Positions 39,495 through 49,220 of a stretch of DNA of 64,000 nucleotides are shown here, piece after piece (within the stretch, counting starts at the first letter, position 1; the number at the start of each line of letters is the position of its first letter). Made by a program: the position numbers and the translations under genes. Source of the stretch: Caulobacteraceae bacterium. Lineage in GTDB: Bacteria; Pseudomonadota; Alphaproteobacteria; Caulobacterales; Caulobacteraceae. The stretch spans positions 62,001 to 126,000 of the forward strand of contig JAIYCQ010000042.1 in NCBI GenBank assembly GCA_027487945.1, given 5' to 3'. The notes beneath the pieces were generated by a model. The model saw only the letters and a program-made list of their open reading frames with translations. It made no database searches and had not been told where the DNA came from.

Positions 39495-39669
39495 CGGTCG
39501 GCCGCAGGGCGGCGCCCAGCCGCCACATCGTCCGGACCATGGGGGCGCGGTCGGCGCCGGCGTCCTCGCAAGCCAATAACCTCAACGTCGGGCCTTGCAC
39601 GCTCCAGCGCCTCGCCGCATGTTGCCGTTCAAACAAGCGTTCGGCCAAAACGGGCCAAGGGAGAGCGAC

Positions 39670-39960
39670 ATGATCGGCGTGGTGGCGACTTTGAAAGTGC
39701 AGCCTGAGAAGGCGGGCGAGTTCGAGGCGGTGTTTCTCGACCTGGCGGCGAAGGTGAAGGCCAACGAGCCGGGCTGCCTGATGTACCAGCTGACCAAGAG
39801 CCGCACCGAGCCGGGCGTCTACAAGGTCCTGGAAGTCTACGCTTCCGACGAGGCCCTGAAGGCCCACGGCGGGACCGACTACTTCAAGGCCGCCGGCGCG
39901 GCGATGGGCCCGACGATGGCCGGCCGTCCCGAGATCGAATACCTCGACGGCGTGGAGTAG
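39670..39960 (+). CDS. Antibiotic biosynthesis monooxygenase (ABM) family protein
   Basis: A 96-aa dimeric ferredoxin-like protein: MIGVVATLKVQPEKAGEFEA, then KANEPGCLMYQLTKSRTEPG and a final HGGTDYFKAAGAAMGPTMAG. This is the YgiN/ABM pattern (quinol or polyketide oxygenation without cofactor, or a dimeric ABM role). AGGGAGAG lies 6 bp before ATG 39670. Six bases separate it from the acyl-CoA dehydrogenase gene, so they form an operon; the enzyme may act on the same or a related pathway, which is inference. Confidence 0.9.
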   Translation: MIGVVATLKVQPEKAGEFEAVFLDLAAKVKANEPGCLMYQLTKSRTEPGVYKVLEVYASDEALKAHGGTDYFKAAGAAMGPTMAGRPEIEYLDGVE

Positions 39961-39966
39961 GCGGCC

Positions 39967-41178
39967 ATGGACCTCGCATTCTCGGAAGACGACAAGGCTT
40001 TCCAGCGCGAGGTCCGCGACTGGATCGCCGAGAACTACGACGAGGACCTGCGTCGGCAGATGTCCCAGTCCAAGAACGGCTATCTCGACAAGGCCGGCCA
40101 GGTGAAGTGGCAGAAGAAGCTCGCCGCGCGCGGATGGGCCGCCACCAACTGGCCGGTCGAGTACGGCGGCGCCGGCTTCACGCCGAGCCAAGCCTACATC
40201 TTCAACATGGAGATGAGCCTGGCGGGGGTGCCGACCTCGTCTCCGATGGGGCTGAAGATGGTCGCTCCGGTGATCATGGCGTTCGGCACGGACGAGCAGA
40301 AGGCCCAACATCTGCCGCCGATCATCAACTCCGACATCTGGTGGTGTCAGGGCTACAGTGAGCCGGGCTCCGGCTCCGACCTCGCCAGCCTGCAGATGAA
40401 GGCCGAGCGCGACGGCGACGACTATGTCCTGAACGGCTCTAAGATCTGGACCACCCACGCCCAGTGGGCTGACTGGATGTTCTGCCTGGTCCGCACCGAC
40501 AACAGCGGAAAGCCCCAGAACGGCATCTCCTTCCTGCTTCTGCGAATGGATACGCCGGGCATCCAGATCAAGCCGCTGCCGACCCTGGACGGACCCGCCG
40601 CCAACGAGCAGGAAATCAATCAGGTCTTCTTCGACAACGTTCGCGTACCGGTCTCCAACCGGATCGGCGAAGAGGGCAAGGGGTGGACCTACGCCAAGTA
40701 TCTGCTCGAGTTCGAGCGCGGGAACGCCTACGCCCCCGGCCTGATGAACCAGCTCAAGAAGGTGCGGACCATCGCCGCCGCTGAGCTGTCCGACCAGGGC
40801 GAGCCCCTCATCCGGGACCGTGACTTCCAGCGCAAGCTGGCGGAAATGGAGATCCGGATCGAGGCCCTCAACGCGACCGAGCTGCGCATCTTCTCGGCCA
40901 TGGGGTCGGGCGAGCCGGTGGGGCCCGCCTCCTCGATGCTCAAGTGCGCCGGTTCGGAAGCCCAGCAGGCGATCACCGAGCTGGCGCTCGAGGCGGTCGG
41001 CGGCTACGCGGCGCCGTTCGTTCAGGACACCTGGGCCGTCACGAACGAGCCCCGGCCGGGGCCTGACTACGCGGCGCCGGCGGCCCCGAGCTACTTCAAC
41101 TACCGCAAGGCCTCGATCTACGCCGGGTCCAACGAGATCCAGCGGAACATCATGGCCAAGCTGGTGCTCGGCCTCTGA
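39967..41178 (+). CDS. Acyl-CoA dehydrogenase family protein
   Basis: A 403-aa FAD enzyme. The N-terminal helical domain begins MDLAFSEDDKAFQREVRDWI; the central barrel has the QGYSEPGSGSDLASLQMKAE and WTTHAQWADWMFCLVRTD blocks; the C-terminal helical domain ends FNYRKASIYAGSNEIQRNIM, the standard signature. Members oxidise acyl-CoA to trans-2-enoyl-CoA with electrons going to ETF. The substrate is unknown; close relatives act on branched, cyclic or terpenoid acyl-CoAs (the 403-aa class differs from short-chain types). Forms an operon with the ABM gene 6 bp upstream. Confidence 0.93.
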   Translation: MDLAFSEDDKAFQREVRDWIAENYDEDLRRQMSQSKNGYLDKAGQVKWQKKLAARGWAATNWPVEYGGAGFTPSQAYIFNMEMSLAGVPTSSPMGLKMVAPVIMAFGTDEQKAQHLPPIINSDIWWCQGYSEPGSGSDLASLQMKAERDGDDYVLNGSKIWTTHAQWADWMFCLVRTDNSGKPQNGISFLLLRMDTPGIQIKPLPTLDGPAANEQEINQVFFDNVRVPVSNRIGEEGKGWTYAKYLLEFERGNAYAPGLMNQLKKVRTIAAAELSDQGEPLIRDRDFQRKLAEMEIRIEALNATELRIFSAMGSGEPVGPASSMLKCAGSEAQQAITELALEAVGGYAAPFVQDTWAVTNEPRPGPDYAAPAAPSYFNYRKASIYAGSNEIQRNIMAKLVLGL

Positions 41179-43056: not shown

Positions 43057-44922
43057 TCAGGCGTCGGCCACCAGGTCGGCGATGACCTGCGGGTGCGAGT
43101 GATAGACCAGCATGCCCGCGTCCTGGATCAGCCGGAAGCGCACGTTCGGCAGCCGACCCCAGGCCTGCTCGACGCCACTGAGCGCCAGCGGCGCGCATTC
43201 GGCCAGGGTCCAGCGCTCGCCGCCGACGCCGTCGGGAACCCGCCAGCCGTCGATCTGGGCGCGGTGCTCTGCCGCGAAGCCGGCGCTGGTTCGCGCGAAC
43301 ATGCCCTGGGCGTCGCGGACCAGCGCGTCCAGCACCCCGGGCTGTTCAAGGGTCGCCGCGTCCACAGGCAGGGCGGCAAGCGACTGACGCATGGTGATCT
43401 CAAGCAGGTCGGTGCGGGTCTGCCGGCGCAGCGTTTCGGCCATCAGCCCGACCAGTTGCGGACTGGTTTTGAAGGACCTCGCTATGACCCCCATCATGCT
43501 CTGCGGCAGGCGGACATGGTACTCAAGCGAGTCTGTAGGCCATTTCGGATTGACCGCGATCCCGGCCGAGATCCGCTCCGGATGCTCGACGGCGAACTTC
43601 AGCCCCGTGGGCGTACTGGCGTCCCGGATCAGGAGCTTGGTGCGGTCGATCTTCAGCGCGTCCAGCACCCGGGCCATGTCGTCCGACCCCTGGCGGAGGA
43701 AGTCGCCGCGGGCGACGTCGGTCAGGCCGAAGCCCGGACGCTGCGGGACGATCGGGCGGTAGCCGTGCTTCTGCAGCGCCCGGACCAGATCCGGCGGCAG
43801 GCGCCGGCCCGTGGCTGCGCCGTGCATCACCATCACCGGCTTGCCGCTGCGCGGACCATAGTCGGTCAGGGCGATGCGGCGGTCTCCGGAGGCGATGACC
43901 CGCAGTCGACCGTTGGGGTCAAGCGGTTCGAGCACGGTCTCGGCGGTGCCGGTCAGGGCCGCCAAGGTGCTCGTCTCGGCCGCGAGGCGAACCAGGTCCT
44001 TGGCCTTGTTGACCCCGGTCTTGGCGAAGACGGCCTTCAGCTGGCCGCGAACCGTCGCCTCCTTGACGCCCAGCCCGTCGGCCACTTCCCGGGCTGTCAG
44101 GCCCTGGGCGAAGCGGGCTGCGGCCTTGGCCTCGGCCGCCGTGGCGCCGAAACTGGAAGCCAGCACCTCCTCGATATCCGGCGGCTCGGGATGGTCGCCG
44201 CACATCAGGTCCATCATGCGACGGATCAGGTCGGGCGATCGCCGCGCACCGGCCTTCTTCATCGCCTTCTTCAGCGCCTCGCGGGCGGTCTCGCGGCCAA
44301 CGCCAATGCGCGCCGCGGCGGCGTCCAGGTTGGCGGCGTCGAGAAGCGCCTCGGACAGTCGCGCTTCGAGGGGCGTGAACCCGAAGGCCTCGGTCGCCCT
44401 TGCGGAGAGATCGCCGGCCCGCGAGGGGGCGAAGCACAGCAGGACGATGCGGCGGCCGGGCCCGTCGAGCGCCACACGGCAGTCCTCGGGCATCGGCCAG
44501 CCGGAAGCGACCTCGCGCACGCCGGCGCAGGCGGCGATCGACGCCCCGTTGGCGCCACCGATGAGGCCCGAGGCCTGCCCAGCCTTCTGGGCCTGCCGGA
44601 TGAGCCGGCGGATCATCAGGGTTTCGACGCCGTCGCTGAACCAGTCGCGGAACGCGCGGTCGGCGTGGAGCAACGCTCCGTCACCGTCCAGCACGGCGAA
44701 GCCCAGTGCCGACCGCGGCGCAACCGTCGCCGTACCTTCACTGGCCGCAAACTGCGCGGAGGCCTCGAGCGCCGCCCGCATGGCCTCGGGTTCGCGGATC
44801 AGGGCGCGCTCGAGAAGGGGCCAGGCCTCGAGAATGGCCTGCGCCGGACGACCCTCGGCCAGACGTTCCCGAAGCACGTCCGGAAAAGTCGCTGTCGCCC
44901 GCTTGAGCACGTCGTTCACCAC
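43057..44922 (-). CDS. PAS-like / double-HTH / alpha-beta hydrolase fusion regulator (copy 1)
   Basis: A 621-aa fusion (GTG 44922, chosen by alignment with its paralogue; TTG 44928 is possible). Layout: N-terminal helical and PAS-like region (~1-165), HTH-like module 1 (~178-240, FTPLEARLSEALLDAANLDA, RIGVGRETAREALKKAMKKA), LuxR-like HTH module 2 (~258-320, LTAREVADGLGVKEATVRGQ), and an alpha/beta-hydrolase domain (~340-615). The hydrolase keeps the HG oxyanion loop (MVMHGAATGR) and a C-terminal VYHSHP His, but the nucleophile elbow reads RDASTP: Ala where Ser/Asp/Cys is expected. It is probably a DNA-binding one-component sensor whose hydrolase fold binds a ligand. It is divergent from the Old Yellow Enzyme gene. 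Confidence 0.85.
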   Translation of the reverse strand: MVNDVLKRATATFPDVLRERLAEGRPAQAILEAWPLLERALIREPEAMRAALEASAQFAASEGTATVAPRSALGFAVLDGDGALLHADRAFRDWFSDGVETLMIRRLIRQAQKAGQASGLIGGANGASIAACAGVREVASGWPMPEDCRVALDGPGRRIVLLCFAPSRAGDLSARATEAFGFTPLEARLSEALLDAANLDAAAARIGVGRETAREALKKAMKKAGARRSPDLIRRMMDLMCGDHPEPPDIEEVLASSFGATAAEAKAAARFAQGLTAREVADGLGVKEATVRGQLKAVFAKTGVNKAKDLVRLAAETSTLAALTGTAETVLEPLDPNGRLRVIASGDRRIALTDYGPRSGKPVMVMHGAATGRRLPPDLVRALQKHGYRPIVPQRPGFGLTDVARGDFLRQGSDDMARVLDALKIDRTKLLIRDASTPTGLKFAVEHPERISAGIAVNPKWPTDSLEYHVRLPQSMMGVIARSFKTSPQLVGLMAETLRRQTRTDLLEITMRQSLAALPVDAATLEQPGVLDALVRDAQGMFARTSAGFAAEHRAQIDGWRVPDGVGGERWTLAECAPLALSGVEQAWGRLPNVRFRLIQDAGMLVYHSHPQVIADLVADA

Positions 44923-45096
44923 CCCCAATCGGGTCCCTCAACCCGATGACCCAAGTCTATCGCGCCTTTCGCTGTCATGAGAACAGAATTCACCGAACTG
45001 GGTACTGATTGATCGCCTTGGAGAATTTCTCGTGCGTGTCCCGGCCCAACGGTTGTTTAGATGGTGTGCAGTTCTCATCCCCTTCCGGAGCCGCCC
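44923..45096. promoter_or_regulatory. Divergent control region between regulator copy 1 and the OYE gene
   Basis: This 174-bp region separates the divergent genes. It holds a short inverted repeat, ATCGGGT at 44928-44934 and ACCCGAT at 44941-44947, overlapping the regulator's start region, and an outer pair ATGAGAAC (44977-44984) / GTTCTCAT (45071-45078) separated by 86 bp. Two spaced, oppositely oriented half-sites suit a DNA-looping or cooperative regulator. I cannot locate the promoters with confidence. Confidence 0.4.
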
Positions 45097-46197
<1,101 letters not shown>

Positions 46198-46309
46198 CCG
46201 GACAGGGGGACAGGCCGATGCGCGCCGTCCCCCGCCCTTGTCCCGGGATCGTATGTGTCGGGAGTATCGGCCCGTCGGGCGTCAGGGGCGGCGCCGATCC
46301 GGACGGTCG

Positions 46310-48175
46310 TTATCGCGCCGGGGCCCGACCGGCGTGGCCCGCGAACAACTCGGCCACCTCGACCGGATGGGAGTGGTAGAAGAGCAACCCGGCCTCGGCG
46401 AGGTCCGTGAACCGCACGCCCGGAAGCATGCCGAACACCGCCTCCACCCCTGGAAGGGTAAGGGGGCGGCATTCCATCACCAGCCAGGGCGCGGCCCCGT
46501 CGACCCTGGGCGGCGTCCAGCCCCGGGCGTAGAGGCTCTGTTCTGCGGCGAACCCTCGACTGCTGCGGGCGGCCATGGCCTGAACGTCACGGACCATGCT
46601 GGCCAGCACCCCCGGTCGGGCGAGCACCTCACGATCGGCGGCGACGTGACTGGCCGATCGGCTGATCATGTCGGCGAGCAGGTCGGAGCGGGTCTGGCGC
46701 CGCAGCATCTCGCCGAATACCGAAACGATTTCCGGCCGTATCAGGAAGGCCTTGGTGATTGATCCCATCAGGGAGTCCGGGCTGCGCACGCCGTCGCCGG
46801 GCCATCGCGGATTGGCCAGCATGCCGGTCAGGACCCTGTCGCCATGGCGGGAGGCGAACCTGAGCGCCGAGGCCGCGCCGTCGTCCCGGGCCAGGATGTG
46901 GACGGCCTTGATCCGCAGGGCGTCGAGCAGGGTGGGCAGGTCGTCGGCGGCCGTCTCCAGGTAGTCCCCGGCGGCGGGATCCGTGAGGCCGAAGCCTGGG
47001 CGCTGGGGTACGATGGGGCGGAAGCCGCGCTGGTGCAGGGCCGTCACGAAGGCGGACGGCAGGGTTCGGCCGGTGATGGTGCCGTGCCCGACCAGAACCG
47101 GCGTTCCGCTCATCGGGCCGTAGTCCCAGGCGGCCACGCGGCGACCGTCCGGGCGGGCGATGATCCGCAGCCGACCGGCCACGCCTTCAAGCTGTGTCGC
47201 CGTTTCGCCGGCCCGGGTCATCGCATCCAGGGTCGAGGCCTCGGCGGCCAGCCGCATCAGATCCCGCGCCTTGCCCACCCCCGACTTCGCATACAGCGCC
47301 TTCAGCTGGCCGCGGATCGTATGCTCGGTCACGCCCAGCTCGGCGGCGACTTCCCTTGCGGTCAGGCCCCGGGCGAGCGCCGCGCCGGTGCGCGCCTCTC
47401 CGGGCGTCGCGCCGAACGCACTGACGAATACGGCGGACAGATCGGTCACCTCCGGCTGGTCGCCGCACATCATGTCCAGCATCCGGCGAACCAGGTCCGA
47501 GGAGCGCCGGACTCCCGCCTTGCGCTGGGCCGAGCGGATGGCGTCCCGCGCCGTCTCCCGGCCGACGCCGGCCCGGTCTGCGGCCACCTCGATCGAGGGC
47601 GCGTCCAGCAGGGCCTCGGCAAGCCGCGACTCCAACGGCGTCAATCCGAAGGCCTGGGTCGCCCGCGCGGCCAGGTCGCTGATGCGCGACGGCGCGAACG
47701 CGACCAGGGCGAACCGGGCCGGCGCCGCCGTCAGCAGGGCGAGGGCCTCGGCCGGCAACGGCCAGCGGGCGGCGGACAGGGCGCCGCCGACGCTGGTCGC
47801 CAGCGCCGCGCCGTCGAGCGCCTCAACAAGTCCCGAAACCGGGCCGCCGCGCGTCGCCAGCCTGAGCAGTCGGTTGAAGGCAGGGATGTCATCGCCGTCG
47901 CCGAACCAGGCCCGGAACGCCGCGTTGCGCCAGTGAACACGCCCGTCCGGGCCGGATACCGCCACGCCGAGCGCTCGGGCCGGGATCAGGGTGGACAGGG
48001 CCTGTGACAGGTCCAGCCGGGCGGCGTCTTCAAGCGCCGCTGCCAGGGCCTCGGGTTCACGAAGCGCCGACGCCTCGATAGCGTGAAAGCTGTCGAGCAC
48101 GGCCTGCGAGGGACGTCCCTCGTTCAGCCGCGCCCGCAGTTCCTCCGCAAGCGAAACCTCGACACGGTTGAGCAC
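46310..48175 (-). CDS. PAS-like / double-HTH / alpha-beta hydrolase fusion regulator (copy 2)
   Basis: A 621-aa paralogue of the regulator at 43057, with the same length and layout and a GTG start. PAS-like region ~60-165, HTH module 1 ~176-236 (LTPLESRLAEALLDAPSIEV), HTH module 2 ~252-313 (LTAREVAAELGVTEHTIRGQ), alpha/beta-hydrolase ~339-610. The hydrolase has H364-G365 in the oxyanion loop and a FYHSHPVEVAEL C-terminal His, but the elbow reads RDDGAA: D432 takes the nucleophile place, as in dehalogenase/epoxide-hydrolase proteins rather than Ser hydrolases. It is convergent with the OYE gene (46197/46310). Together the two regulators bracket the OYE gene. Confidence 0.85.
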   Translation of the reverse strand: MLNRVEVSLAEELRARLNEGRPSQAVLDSFHAIEASALREPEALAAALEDAARLDLSQALSTLIPARALGVAVSGPDGRVHWRNAAFRAWFGDGDDIPAFNRLLRLATRGGPVSGLVEALDGAALATSVGGALSAARWPLPAEALALLTAAPARFALVAFAPSRISDLAARATQAFGLTPLESRLAEALLDAPSIEVAADRAGVGRETARDAIRSAQRKAGVRRSSDLVRRMLDMMCGDQPEVTDLSAVFVSAFGATPGEARTGAALARGLTAREVAAELGVTEHTIRGQLKALYAKSGVGKARDLMRLAAEASTLDAMTRAGETATQLEGVAGRLRIIARPDGRRVAAWDYGPMSGTPVLVGHGTITGRTLPSAFVTALHQRGFRPIVPQRPGFGLTDPAAGDYLETAADDLPTLLDALRIKAVHILARDDGAASALRFASRHGDRVLTGMLANPRWPGDGVRSPDSLMGSITKAFLIRPEIVSVFGEMLRRQTRSDLLADMISRSASHVAADREVLARPGVLASMVRDVQAMAARSSRGFAAEQSLYARGWTPPRVDGAAPWLVMECRPLTLPGVEAVFGMLPGVRFTDLAEAGLLFYHSHPVEVAELFAGHAGRAPAR

Positions 48176-48239: not shown

Positions 48240-49151
48240 TCAGGCGTTGTAGTTCAGCTTCAGTCCCGGCCGGGGCCATTTGGCCTTGTACAGCTTGCCG
48301 GTGCCGGAGGCGGTCACCCAGGCCGTGGTCATGTCCGGCCCGCCGAAGCAGATGTTGGTCACCAGAAGGTCCGGGAACGGATAGTGCTCGGTCGTGCCGT
48401 CCGGATCGAAGGCGGTGATGCCGCCGTTGATGATGGTGGCCACGCAGACCTTGCCGCCCGCCTCGACGGCGAGACTGTCGAGCAGCTGGTAGCCTGGCAG
48501 GTTGCAGACCACCCGTCCCGGCTGGAACGGCGGCCCGTCGGCCAGCACGCCCGGTTCGGCGACCTCGAACGCCCAAAGGCGGCCGAGGTTGGTGTCGGCC
48601 ATGTAGACGACCGTCTCGTCCGGCGACAGGCCCACGCCGTTGGGCGAGATCATGTGCTCCCGGGCGCGCGTGACCTTCGAGCCGTCGGTCTTCGCATAGT
48701 GGAGCGCGCCGTGTTTGCGGCCATCCGGCGTGGTGCAGCCATGGTCGGTGAACCAGAAGCCGCCCTGTTTGTCGAAGACGAGGTCGTTGGGGCCGTTGAA
48801 AGGTTTGCCGTCGCAGCTGTCGTAGACGGTCTCGACCTTGCGCGTGACCGGATCGATCCGCTGGATGTAGCCACCCGTGTGGCTGGGCGGGGTGGGCCCC
48901 GGGATCAGCAGGCCGCCCATCTCCTGGAAGTCGAAGCTGCCGCCGTTGTTGGTCACCCATATGGCGCCGTCGGGACCGACCGCCGCGCCGTTGGGTCCTC
49001 CGCCGGTCTCGGCGTAGACCTCGGCCTTGCCGTCGGGCGTGATGCGCGTCAGGCGCTGGCCGGCGATCTCGGTGAGGATCACCGAGCCGTCGGCCATTGC
49101 GATGGGCCCCTCGGGAAACTTCAGTCCTTCGGCGACGAGTTCGATGTCCAT
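48240..49151 (-). CDS. SMP-30/gluconolactonase family protein
   Basis: A 303-aa six-bladed beta-propeller of the SMP-30/Gnl/LRE family, which hydrolyses sugar lactones or related esters using one divalent metal. Visible family points: E14 in EGLKFPEGPIAMADGSVILT (the first metal ligand), the NNGG motif (VTNNGGSF), N-P-N-D in KPFNGPNDLVFDKQGGFWFT, and MISPNGVGLSPDETVVYMAD with its conserved Asp. No signal peptide, so it is probably cytoplasmic. ATG 49151 follows AAAGGGAG. It precedes regulator copy 2 on the same strand by 64 bp; a link to it is possible but unproven. Confidence 0.9.
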   Translation of the reverse strand: MDIELVAEGLKFPEGPIAMADGSVILTEIAGQRLTRITPDGKAEVYAETGGGPNGAAVGPDGAIWVTNNGGSFDFQEMGGLLIPGPTPPSHTGGYIQRIDPVTRKVETVYDSCDGKPFNGPNDLVFDKQGGFWFTDHGCTTPDGRKHGALHYAKTDGSKVTRAREHMISPNGVGLSPDETVVYMADTNLGRLWAFEVAEPGVLADGPPFQPGRVVCNLPGYQLLDSLAVEAGGKVCVATIINGGITAFDPDGTTEHYPFPDLLVTNICFGGPDMTTAWVTASGTGKLYKAKWPRPGLKLNYNA

Positions 49152-49220
49152 GGCTGGCGCGCTCCCTTTTTTCTGATTGGGCGGGAGTGAACCCAATGAC
49201 GCTGGGTCAGCGCAAGCGAT

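What the first reader, a model, noticed from the sequence alone, without database searches (positions are those of the whole stretch)
43057..48175. Two paralogous PAS/double-HTH/alpha-beta-hydrolase regulators bracket an Old Yellow Enzyme
Seen: the two proteins are both about 621 aa with identical domain order (PAS-like, HTH-like module, LuxR-like HTH, alpha/beta-hydrolase), they lie on either side of one enoate reductase gene, and one is divergent from it across a 174-bp control region. Known: alpha/beta-hydrolase folds have become receptors elsewhere (plant D14/KAI2, GID1; bacterial RsbQ), and OYEs reduce activated alkenes. Inference: these may be one-component sensors that bind a hydrolase-type ligand and control an alkene-reducing enzyme. 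I do not know a described system with this arrangement, but I cannot search.
Basis: partly seen in the sequence, partly recalled or inferred. Interest (0 to 1): 0.75.

Follow-up and report, generated by a model that had tools for sequence, protein, structure and literature searches.

The report
Dead-hydrolase gene regulators flanking a reductase
Two related bacterial proteins on either side of an alkene-reducing enzyme gene look like DNA-binding switches that carry a once-enzymatic, now apparently inactive hydrolase domain as their probable sensor, and one of them has stayed beside that enzyme gene in many relatives.

Summary
R1 (43057-44922, -) and R2 (46310-48175, -) are 50% identical regulators on either side of an Old Yellow Enzyme (OYE) gene. 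Each has a PAS-like domain, two homologous LuxR-type HTHs in tandem and an alpha/beta-hydrolase domain (R1 model pLDDT 94). By alignment the hydrolase domain is catalytically broken: of 92 relatives, 59 keep Asp at the nucleophile column and none of these has the catalytic His; the other 33 lack the Asp. Asp kept with His lost is the arrangement engineered into HaloTag.

R1 is divergent from the OYE in 20 of 20 R1-type rows of a 31-row clade, so that link is conserved. R2 is not reliably linked. The control region carries a PsrA-type fatty-acid box that is no less enriched in genomes without these regulators, so it cannot be credited to R1; it places the OYE in a lipid/ketone-type regulon.

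My searches found no described family with this architecture; single-HTH relatives occur elsewhere in Pseudomonadota. Best reading: R1 is a one-component transcription factor whose inactive hydrolase pocket binds a ligand and tunes the OYE. DNA binding, ligand and control are inferred, not shown.

The parts
43057..44922 (-). R1: PAS / tandem LuxR-HTH / inactive alpha-beta-hydrolase regulator (GTG 44922; TTG 44928 also possible). Residue numbers below count from the TTG at 44928
44419..44730 (-). R1 PAS-like domain, residues about 67-170
   Evidence: EL222/VqmA and PAS-B folds; Pfam PAS_4 only E 0.1
44200..44415 (-). R1 HTH1 (LuxR-type), residues about 172-243; E213-T214-A215-R216 are 80/96/97/96% conserved
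43969..44175 (-). R1 HTH2 (LuxR/GerE-type), residues about 252-320
43069..43926 (-). R1 alpha/beta-hydrolase domain, residues about 335-620
43621..43623 (-). codon of D436 (nucleophile column of haloalkane dehalogenases), kept in 59 of 59 rows of its clade
43111..43113 (-). codon of M606 (catalytic His column); His in 0 of 59 rows of its clade, 2 of 92 in all
   Evidence: in the direct alignment with 6f9o this part scores only 0.1 bit
44923..45096 (.). divergent R1/OYE control region
45021..45034 (+). conserved block GAGAATTTCTCGTG of the OYE promoter; a TTTCT block of this kind in 20 of 21 regulator-linked and 8 of 11 regulator-free OYE loci
45047..45061 (+). palindrome CAACGGTTGTTTAGA, PsrA-type box upstream of the OYE start
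45097..46197 (+). Old Yellow Enzyme family reductase (366 aa from GTG 45097)
46310..48175 (-). R2: paralogue of R1, convergent with the OYE
48240..49196 (-). SMP-30/gluconolactonase-like gene directly upstream of R2, same strand
   Evidence: PF08450 E 1.1e-50
39628..39642 (-). second PsrA-type box of the window, 27 bp before the ABM gene
39667..41178 (+). ABM-domain gene (39667-39960) and acyl-CoA dehydrogenase (39967-41178), which share the box type with the OYE

Best explanation
R1 is a one-component transcription factor. Its two tandem LuxR-type HTHs bind DNA in or near the R1/OYE gap. Its C-terminal alpha/beta-hydrolase domain no longer catalyses turnover and serves as a ligand-binding sensor, perhaps together with the PAS domain. 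Ligand binding changes transcription of the divergent OYE gene and probably of R1 itself. This sits on top of a wider PsrA-type fatty-acid/ketone regulon to which the OYE also seems to belong. R2 is a diverged paralogue whose own target is open. Shown by computation: architecture, tandem HTH, broken triad, conserved R1-OYE divergence. Inferred: DNA binding, ligand, direction of regulation.
For: Tandem homologous HTHs related to the EL222 HTH; confident model with alpha/beta-hydrolase fold matches from E 1e-10. By alignment no row of 92 has Asp at the nucleophile column together with His at the catalytic column, while other pocket positions stay fixed (H369 92/92, R391 92/92, D417 and D523 invariant, R435 89/92, H612 86/92). 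R1-type genes diverge from the OYE within 400 bp in 20 of 20 rows of a clade with SH-aLRT 100 whose members are as little as 52% identical to R1; 0 of 61 rows outside that clade do. 22 distinct loci with the pair were read.
Against: No binding site specific to R1 was found: the conserved palindrome and TTTCT block also occur at OYE promoters without R1. 11 of the 32 OYE loci compared have no adjacent regulator, and most family genomes with the OYE lack R1. Outside the clade, family members sit beside other genes, so the OYE is not the general target. Conserved position does not prove regulation.
Confidence: 0.55

Rival explanations
1. The OYE is controlled by a PsrA-like TetR repressor as part of a fatty-acid/ketone regulon, and R1 mainly regulates itself or distant genes; the fixed neighbourhood is inherited linkage.
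For: Pattern SAACRNNYGTTTARA with up to 1 mismatch: 15 sites in the genome against 3 for the reversed pattern; 11 of the 14 other sites lie within about 65 bp upstream of a predicted start, 9 of them before ABM/acyl-CoA dehydrogenase, MDR, SDR, FMO-like or nitronate monooxygenase genes. In the genus, 17 genomes without the regulator family hold 129 exact sites of the related pattern against 12 controls, 6 with it 40 against 6. PsrA sites are C/GAAACN2-4GTTTG/C (passages of PMC13104628).
Against: The R1-OYE divergence survives about 50% sequence divergence of R1. The psrA-like gene itself was not searched for.
Confidence: 0.25
2. The PAS domain is the sensor and the hydrolase domain only holds the protein together or makes the dimer.
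For: PAS plus LuxR-HTH is the known layout of EL222 and VqmA, the best fold matches of the N-terminal part.
Against: Mean conservation is lower in the PAS domain (0.44) than in the hydrolase domain (0.52), and the invariant pocket residues lie in the hydrolase domain. No LOV cysteine motif is visible in the PAS sequence (by eye; motif recalled).
Confidence: 0.13
3. The protein is a bifunctional enzyme-regulator whose hydrolase domain still acts on an OYE substrate or product.
For: Asp at the nucleophile column is kept in 59 of 59 rows of the R1/R2 clade.
Against: No catalytic His in those 59 rows; the usual acid position at 581 is L in 62 and M in 13 of 92.
Confidence: 0.05

Closest known systems
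PAS/LOV-HTH one-component regulators (EL222, VqmA)
   Same: PAS-like fold followed by a LuxR-type HTH; best fold and HTH matches
   Different: Two HTHs in tandem and an added C-terminal hydrolase domain; no LOV cysteine motif by eye
Haloalkane dehalogenases and epoxide hydrolases (6f9o, DhaA; Caulobacter DccA 5esr)
   Same: Closest sequence relatives of the C-terminal domain; Asp at the nucleophile column
   Different: Catalytic His replaced; fused to a DNA-binding region
HaloTag (DhaA H272F)
   Same: Asp nucleophile with the His replaced by a hydrophobic residue, F in 7 of 31 OYE-clade rows; trapping mechanism from a passage of PMC13376172
   Different: Engineered; whether R1 forms any adduct is unknown; the halide-binding N and W of DhaA (recalled) are not kept in R1
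Hydrolase-fold receptors D14/KAI2, GID1 and RsbQ (recalled)
   Same: Hydrolase fold used, or proposed here, as a ligand receptor
   Different: Not fused to a DNA-binding domain; D14, KAI2 and RsbQ keep a Ser-His-Asp triad (recalled)
Single-HTH LuxR/alpha-beta-hydrolase proteins of Pseudomonadota (found here, unnamed)
   Same: LuxR-type HTH followed by a hydrolase domain; 31 of 34 frames examined
   Different: One HTH instead of two; a few keep GxSxG plus His (L183, L218, L222)

Membership tests
LuxR/GerE-type HTH regulators | LuxR-type HTH | tested here: met
   Profile match to the EL222 HTH E 1.8e-12; HTH1 and HTH2 homologous. Pfam GerE stays under its cut-off in both proteins
LOV photoreceptors such as EL222 | Flavin-binding cysteine motif in the PAS domain | tested here: not met
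   Absent from the R1 PAS sequence by eye; motif recalled
Alpha/beta-hydrolase fold | Canonical fold | tested here: met
   Pfam PF00561 above cut-off in R1 and R2; fold search E 1e-10
Active alpha/beta hydrolases and haloalkane dehalogenases | Nucleophile plus catalytic His | tested here: not met
   0 of 92 rows have Asp at 436 together with His at 606; the His column rests on the family alignment and weak direct alignment
HaloTag-like covalent traps | Stable ester on the Asp nucleophile | not testable with these tools
   Only the Asp-kept, His-lost pattern was seen
Old Yellow Enzyme family | Oxidored_FMN domain | tested here: met
   PF00724 E 5e-63; solved relatives Sye4 and OPR3 E about 1e-40
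PsrA regulon | C/GAAACN2-4GTTTG/C box at the promoter | tested here: met
   Near match at 45047-45061; definition from passages of PMC13104628
PsrA regulon | PsrA-like TetR protein that binds it | not tested
   No search for the gene was made

The most novel reading that the evidence does not exclude
R1 and its 59-row clade are natural self-labelling transcription factors: an Asp nucleophile is attacked by an electrophilic ligand (epoxide, lactone, haloalkane or the like), and without the catalytic His the covalent adduct is not released, so each molecule acts as a one-shot chemical switch that controls an electrophile- or lipid-processing enzyme such as the OYE. This would be a natural counterpart of HaloTag.
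Probability: 0.09. Interest if true: 0.88.

Novelty: new variant of a known kind. Interest (0 to 1): 0.52.

Why it matters
If right, it is a family of bacterial transcription factors in which a hydrolase fold has been turned into an intracellular chemical sensor, with a rare tandem LuxR HTH. It offers a tractable system to ask how enzymes become receptors, a question raised by D14/KAI2, and a source of biosensors for lipid, ketone or electrophile ligands. The fixed Asp with lost His makes a covalent-sensor test immediate.

Tried and rejected
The R1/OYE palindrome as the R1 operator: rejected as unproven. All 21 regulator-linked OYE loci have AACN4GTTTA and 0 of 11 regulator-free ones do (0 of 31 in the wider set), but the AACN4GTTT core occurs in 3 of those 11, only 2 supported independent pairs exist (sign test p 0.5), and the box is a genome-wide motif in genus genomes without the regulator family.

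The inverted repeat in the R1 leader as an operator: pattern GGGTCCCTCRACC gave 12 genome hits against 9 for the reversed control, so no regulon signal.

R2 as a local tandem copy tied to the OYE: the tree puts R2 in an 11-row clade, five rows of which lie elsewhere with no OYE in the stretch fetched.

Literature for the architecture and for OYE regulation: no matching system seen in the listings; passages of PMC5882156, PMC3466318, PMC3140968 and PMC2447327 do not describe it. Subscription papers and preprints are not in that library.

Rows left out: A1 holds the window pair and 90 of 93 clustered regulator frames (identical ones removed); merged or broken frames (R1 of L009, L117 and L123, R2 of L115 with an in-frame stop) are not in it.
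Full report
What is there. One search confirms three genes: R1 (43057-44922, -), an OYE (45097-46197, +) and R2 (46310-48175, -). R1 and R2 are 50% identical over their length. A third paralogue, 33% identical to R1, lies elsewhere in the genome (C6:1830-3638), next to a GST-like gene.

Architecture. Pfam finds Abhydrolase_1 above cut-off in both proteins; HTH and PAS hits are weak. No NCBIfam family covers the whole protein; the hits are partial and far below their cut-offs. An alignment of 92 relatives gave a model with pLDDT 94.2 and pTM 0.92: helical N-terminus, PAS-like domain, two helical HTH blocks, then the hydrolase domain. Profile comparison shows that the two HTH blocks are homologous (98.7%, E 3.3e-16); the family profile matches the EL222 HTH (E 1.8e-12). 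For residues 1-329 the best folds are EL222 and VqmA, with low TM-scores over the whole fragment. HTH1 is the better conserved HTH (0.65 against 0.58 mean majority residue).

The hydrolase domain. The closest solved sequences are haloalkane dehalogenases (6f9o, E 1.4e-10); the full model matches alpha/beta hydrolases from E 1e-10. In the profile alignment with 6f9o, D436 falls on the conserved Asp of the motif QDWGG, the nucleophile motif of these enzymes (recalled), and position 606 on the His of GGHF; the second piece scores only 0.1 bit, so the His column also rests on the spacing G605 to H612-P613. The tree splits the family in two. In the 59-row clade with R1 and R2, R435 and D436 are present in 59 of 59 and 606 is never His (L 26, V 11, F 8, M 5, I 3, R 3, Y 2, W 1). 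In the 33-row clade the D436 column is empty in 33 of 33, and 606 is R in 31 and H in 2. H369 is kept in 92 of 92 and H612 in 86 of 92. So catalysis was probably lost while a pocket stayed under selection. Asp with a hydrophobic residue instead of His is how HaloTag traps its ligand (one passage of PMC13376172).

Wider kind. The family is found at E<=1e-30 in 73 of 299 Caulobacteraceae genomes. Outside the family, 5 of 385 class genomes other than the own genome, a set that includes a few family members without a match, matched at 1e-40. In a phylum sample, 32 of 398 matched at 1e-25, four of them from the window's own family, the own genome included. Of 34 frames examined from those loci, 31 have one HTH, 2 have two (L179, L214) and 1 has none. 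A few keep GxSxG plus His (L183, L218, L222), which suggests that loss of catalysis came after the fusion (inference).

Link to the OYE. The OYE is in 228 of 299 family genomes (E<=1e-100). R1-type regulators are divergent from it within 400 bp in 20 of 20 rows of the 31-row clade (SH-aLRT 100, quick tree), and none of the 61 rows outside is (flanks up to 3.5 kb, shorter at contig ends). L096 has an OYE 3 kb away and L088 an OYE-like fragment 1.5 kb away. Twenty-two distinct loci with the pair were read. R2-type rows: OYE convergent within 1.1 kb in 5 of 11, 3.5 kb away in one, not seen in five.

The control region. OYE promoters share a TTTCT block and a palindrome. The palindrome fits the PsrA box C/GAAACN2-4GTTTG/C (passages of PMC13104628). 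There are two boxes in the window (39628-39642 and 45047-45061; 0.03 expected) and 15 in the genome with up to one mismatch, against 3 for the reversed pattern. Of the 14 besides the OYE site, 11 lie within about 65 bp upstream of a predicted start, 9 of these before ABM/acyl-CoA dehydrogenase, MDR, acyl-CoA dehydrogenase, nitronate monooxygenase, SDR or FMO-like genes; the other three do not. Genus genomes without the regulator family have the motif as well (129 against 12 control in 17 genomes; 40 against 6 in 6 genomes with it). The box is therefore not evidence for R1, and the OYE probably also belongs to a lipid/ketone regulon.

How it most likely works. R1 senses a small molecule with its inactive hydrolase pocket and changes transcription of the divergent OYE and probably of itself. 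Shown: domain make-up, tandem HTH, broken triad by alignment, conserved divergence. Inferred: DNA binding, ligand, sign of control. Neighbours of other family members, by representative, include GST, enoyl-CoA hydratase, SDR, MDR, acyl-CoA dehydrogenase and further hydrolases, but also RcnB, TraB, CsgG, transglutaminase and amidohydrolase genes, so ligands probably differ between members.

Novelty. My searches found no described family with this architecture; the library is open-access only. I file it as a new variant of one-component LuxR-type regulators.

Noticed in passing
window 39628-39642 and 45047-45061: Two PsrA-type boxes, before the ABM/acyl-CoA dehydrogenase pair and before the OYE; part of a genome-wide motif before lipid/redox genes.
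   Followed up: partly
window 44928-44948: Short inverted repeat with a conserved GAGGGA loop just before the R1 start; it folds as an RNA hairpin in most near relatives examined. Function unknown.
   Followed up: partly
33-row clade of alignment A1: The nucleophile column is deleted in 33 of 33 rows and the His column is Arg in 31 of 33: a second way of losing catalysis.
   Followed up: no
L102:1772-5332: Two regulators of the family head to tail in one genome.
   Followed up: no
L088:1-714: An OYE-like fragment at the contig start near the third paralogue of the window's own genome.
   Followed up: no
L205:2009-2671 and L108, L109, L112-L114: A gene that looks by eye like the one directly upstream of R2-type regulators in five relatives carries the PsrA-type box in the own genome, where no R2 sits beside it.
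   Followed up: no
L115 (G227:C71:32541-34394): R2 orthologue with an in-frame TAG, probably decaying.
   Followed up: no
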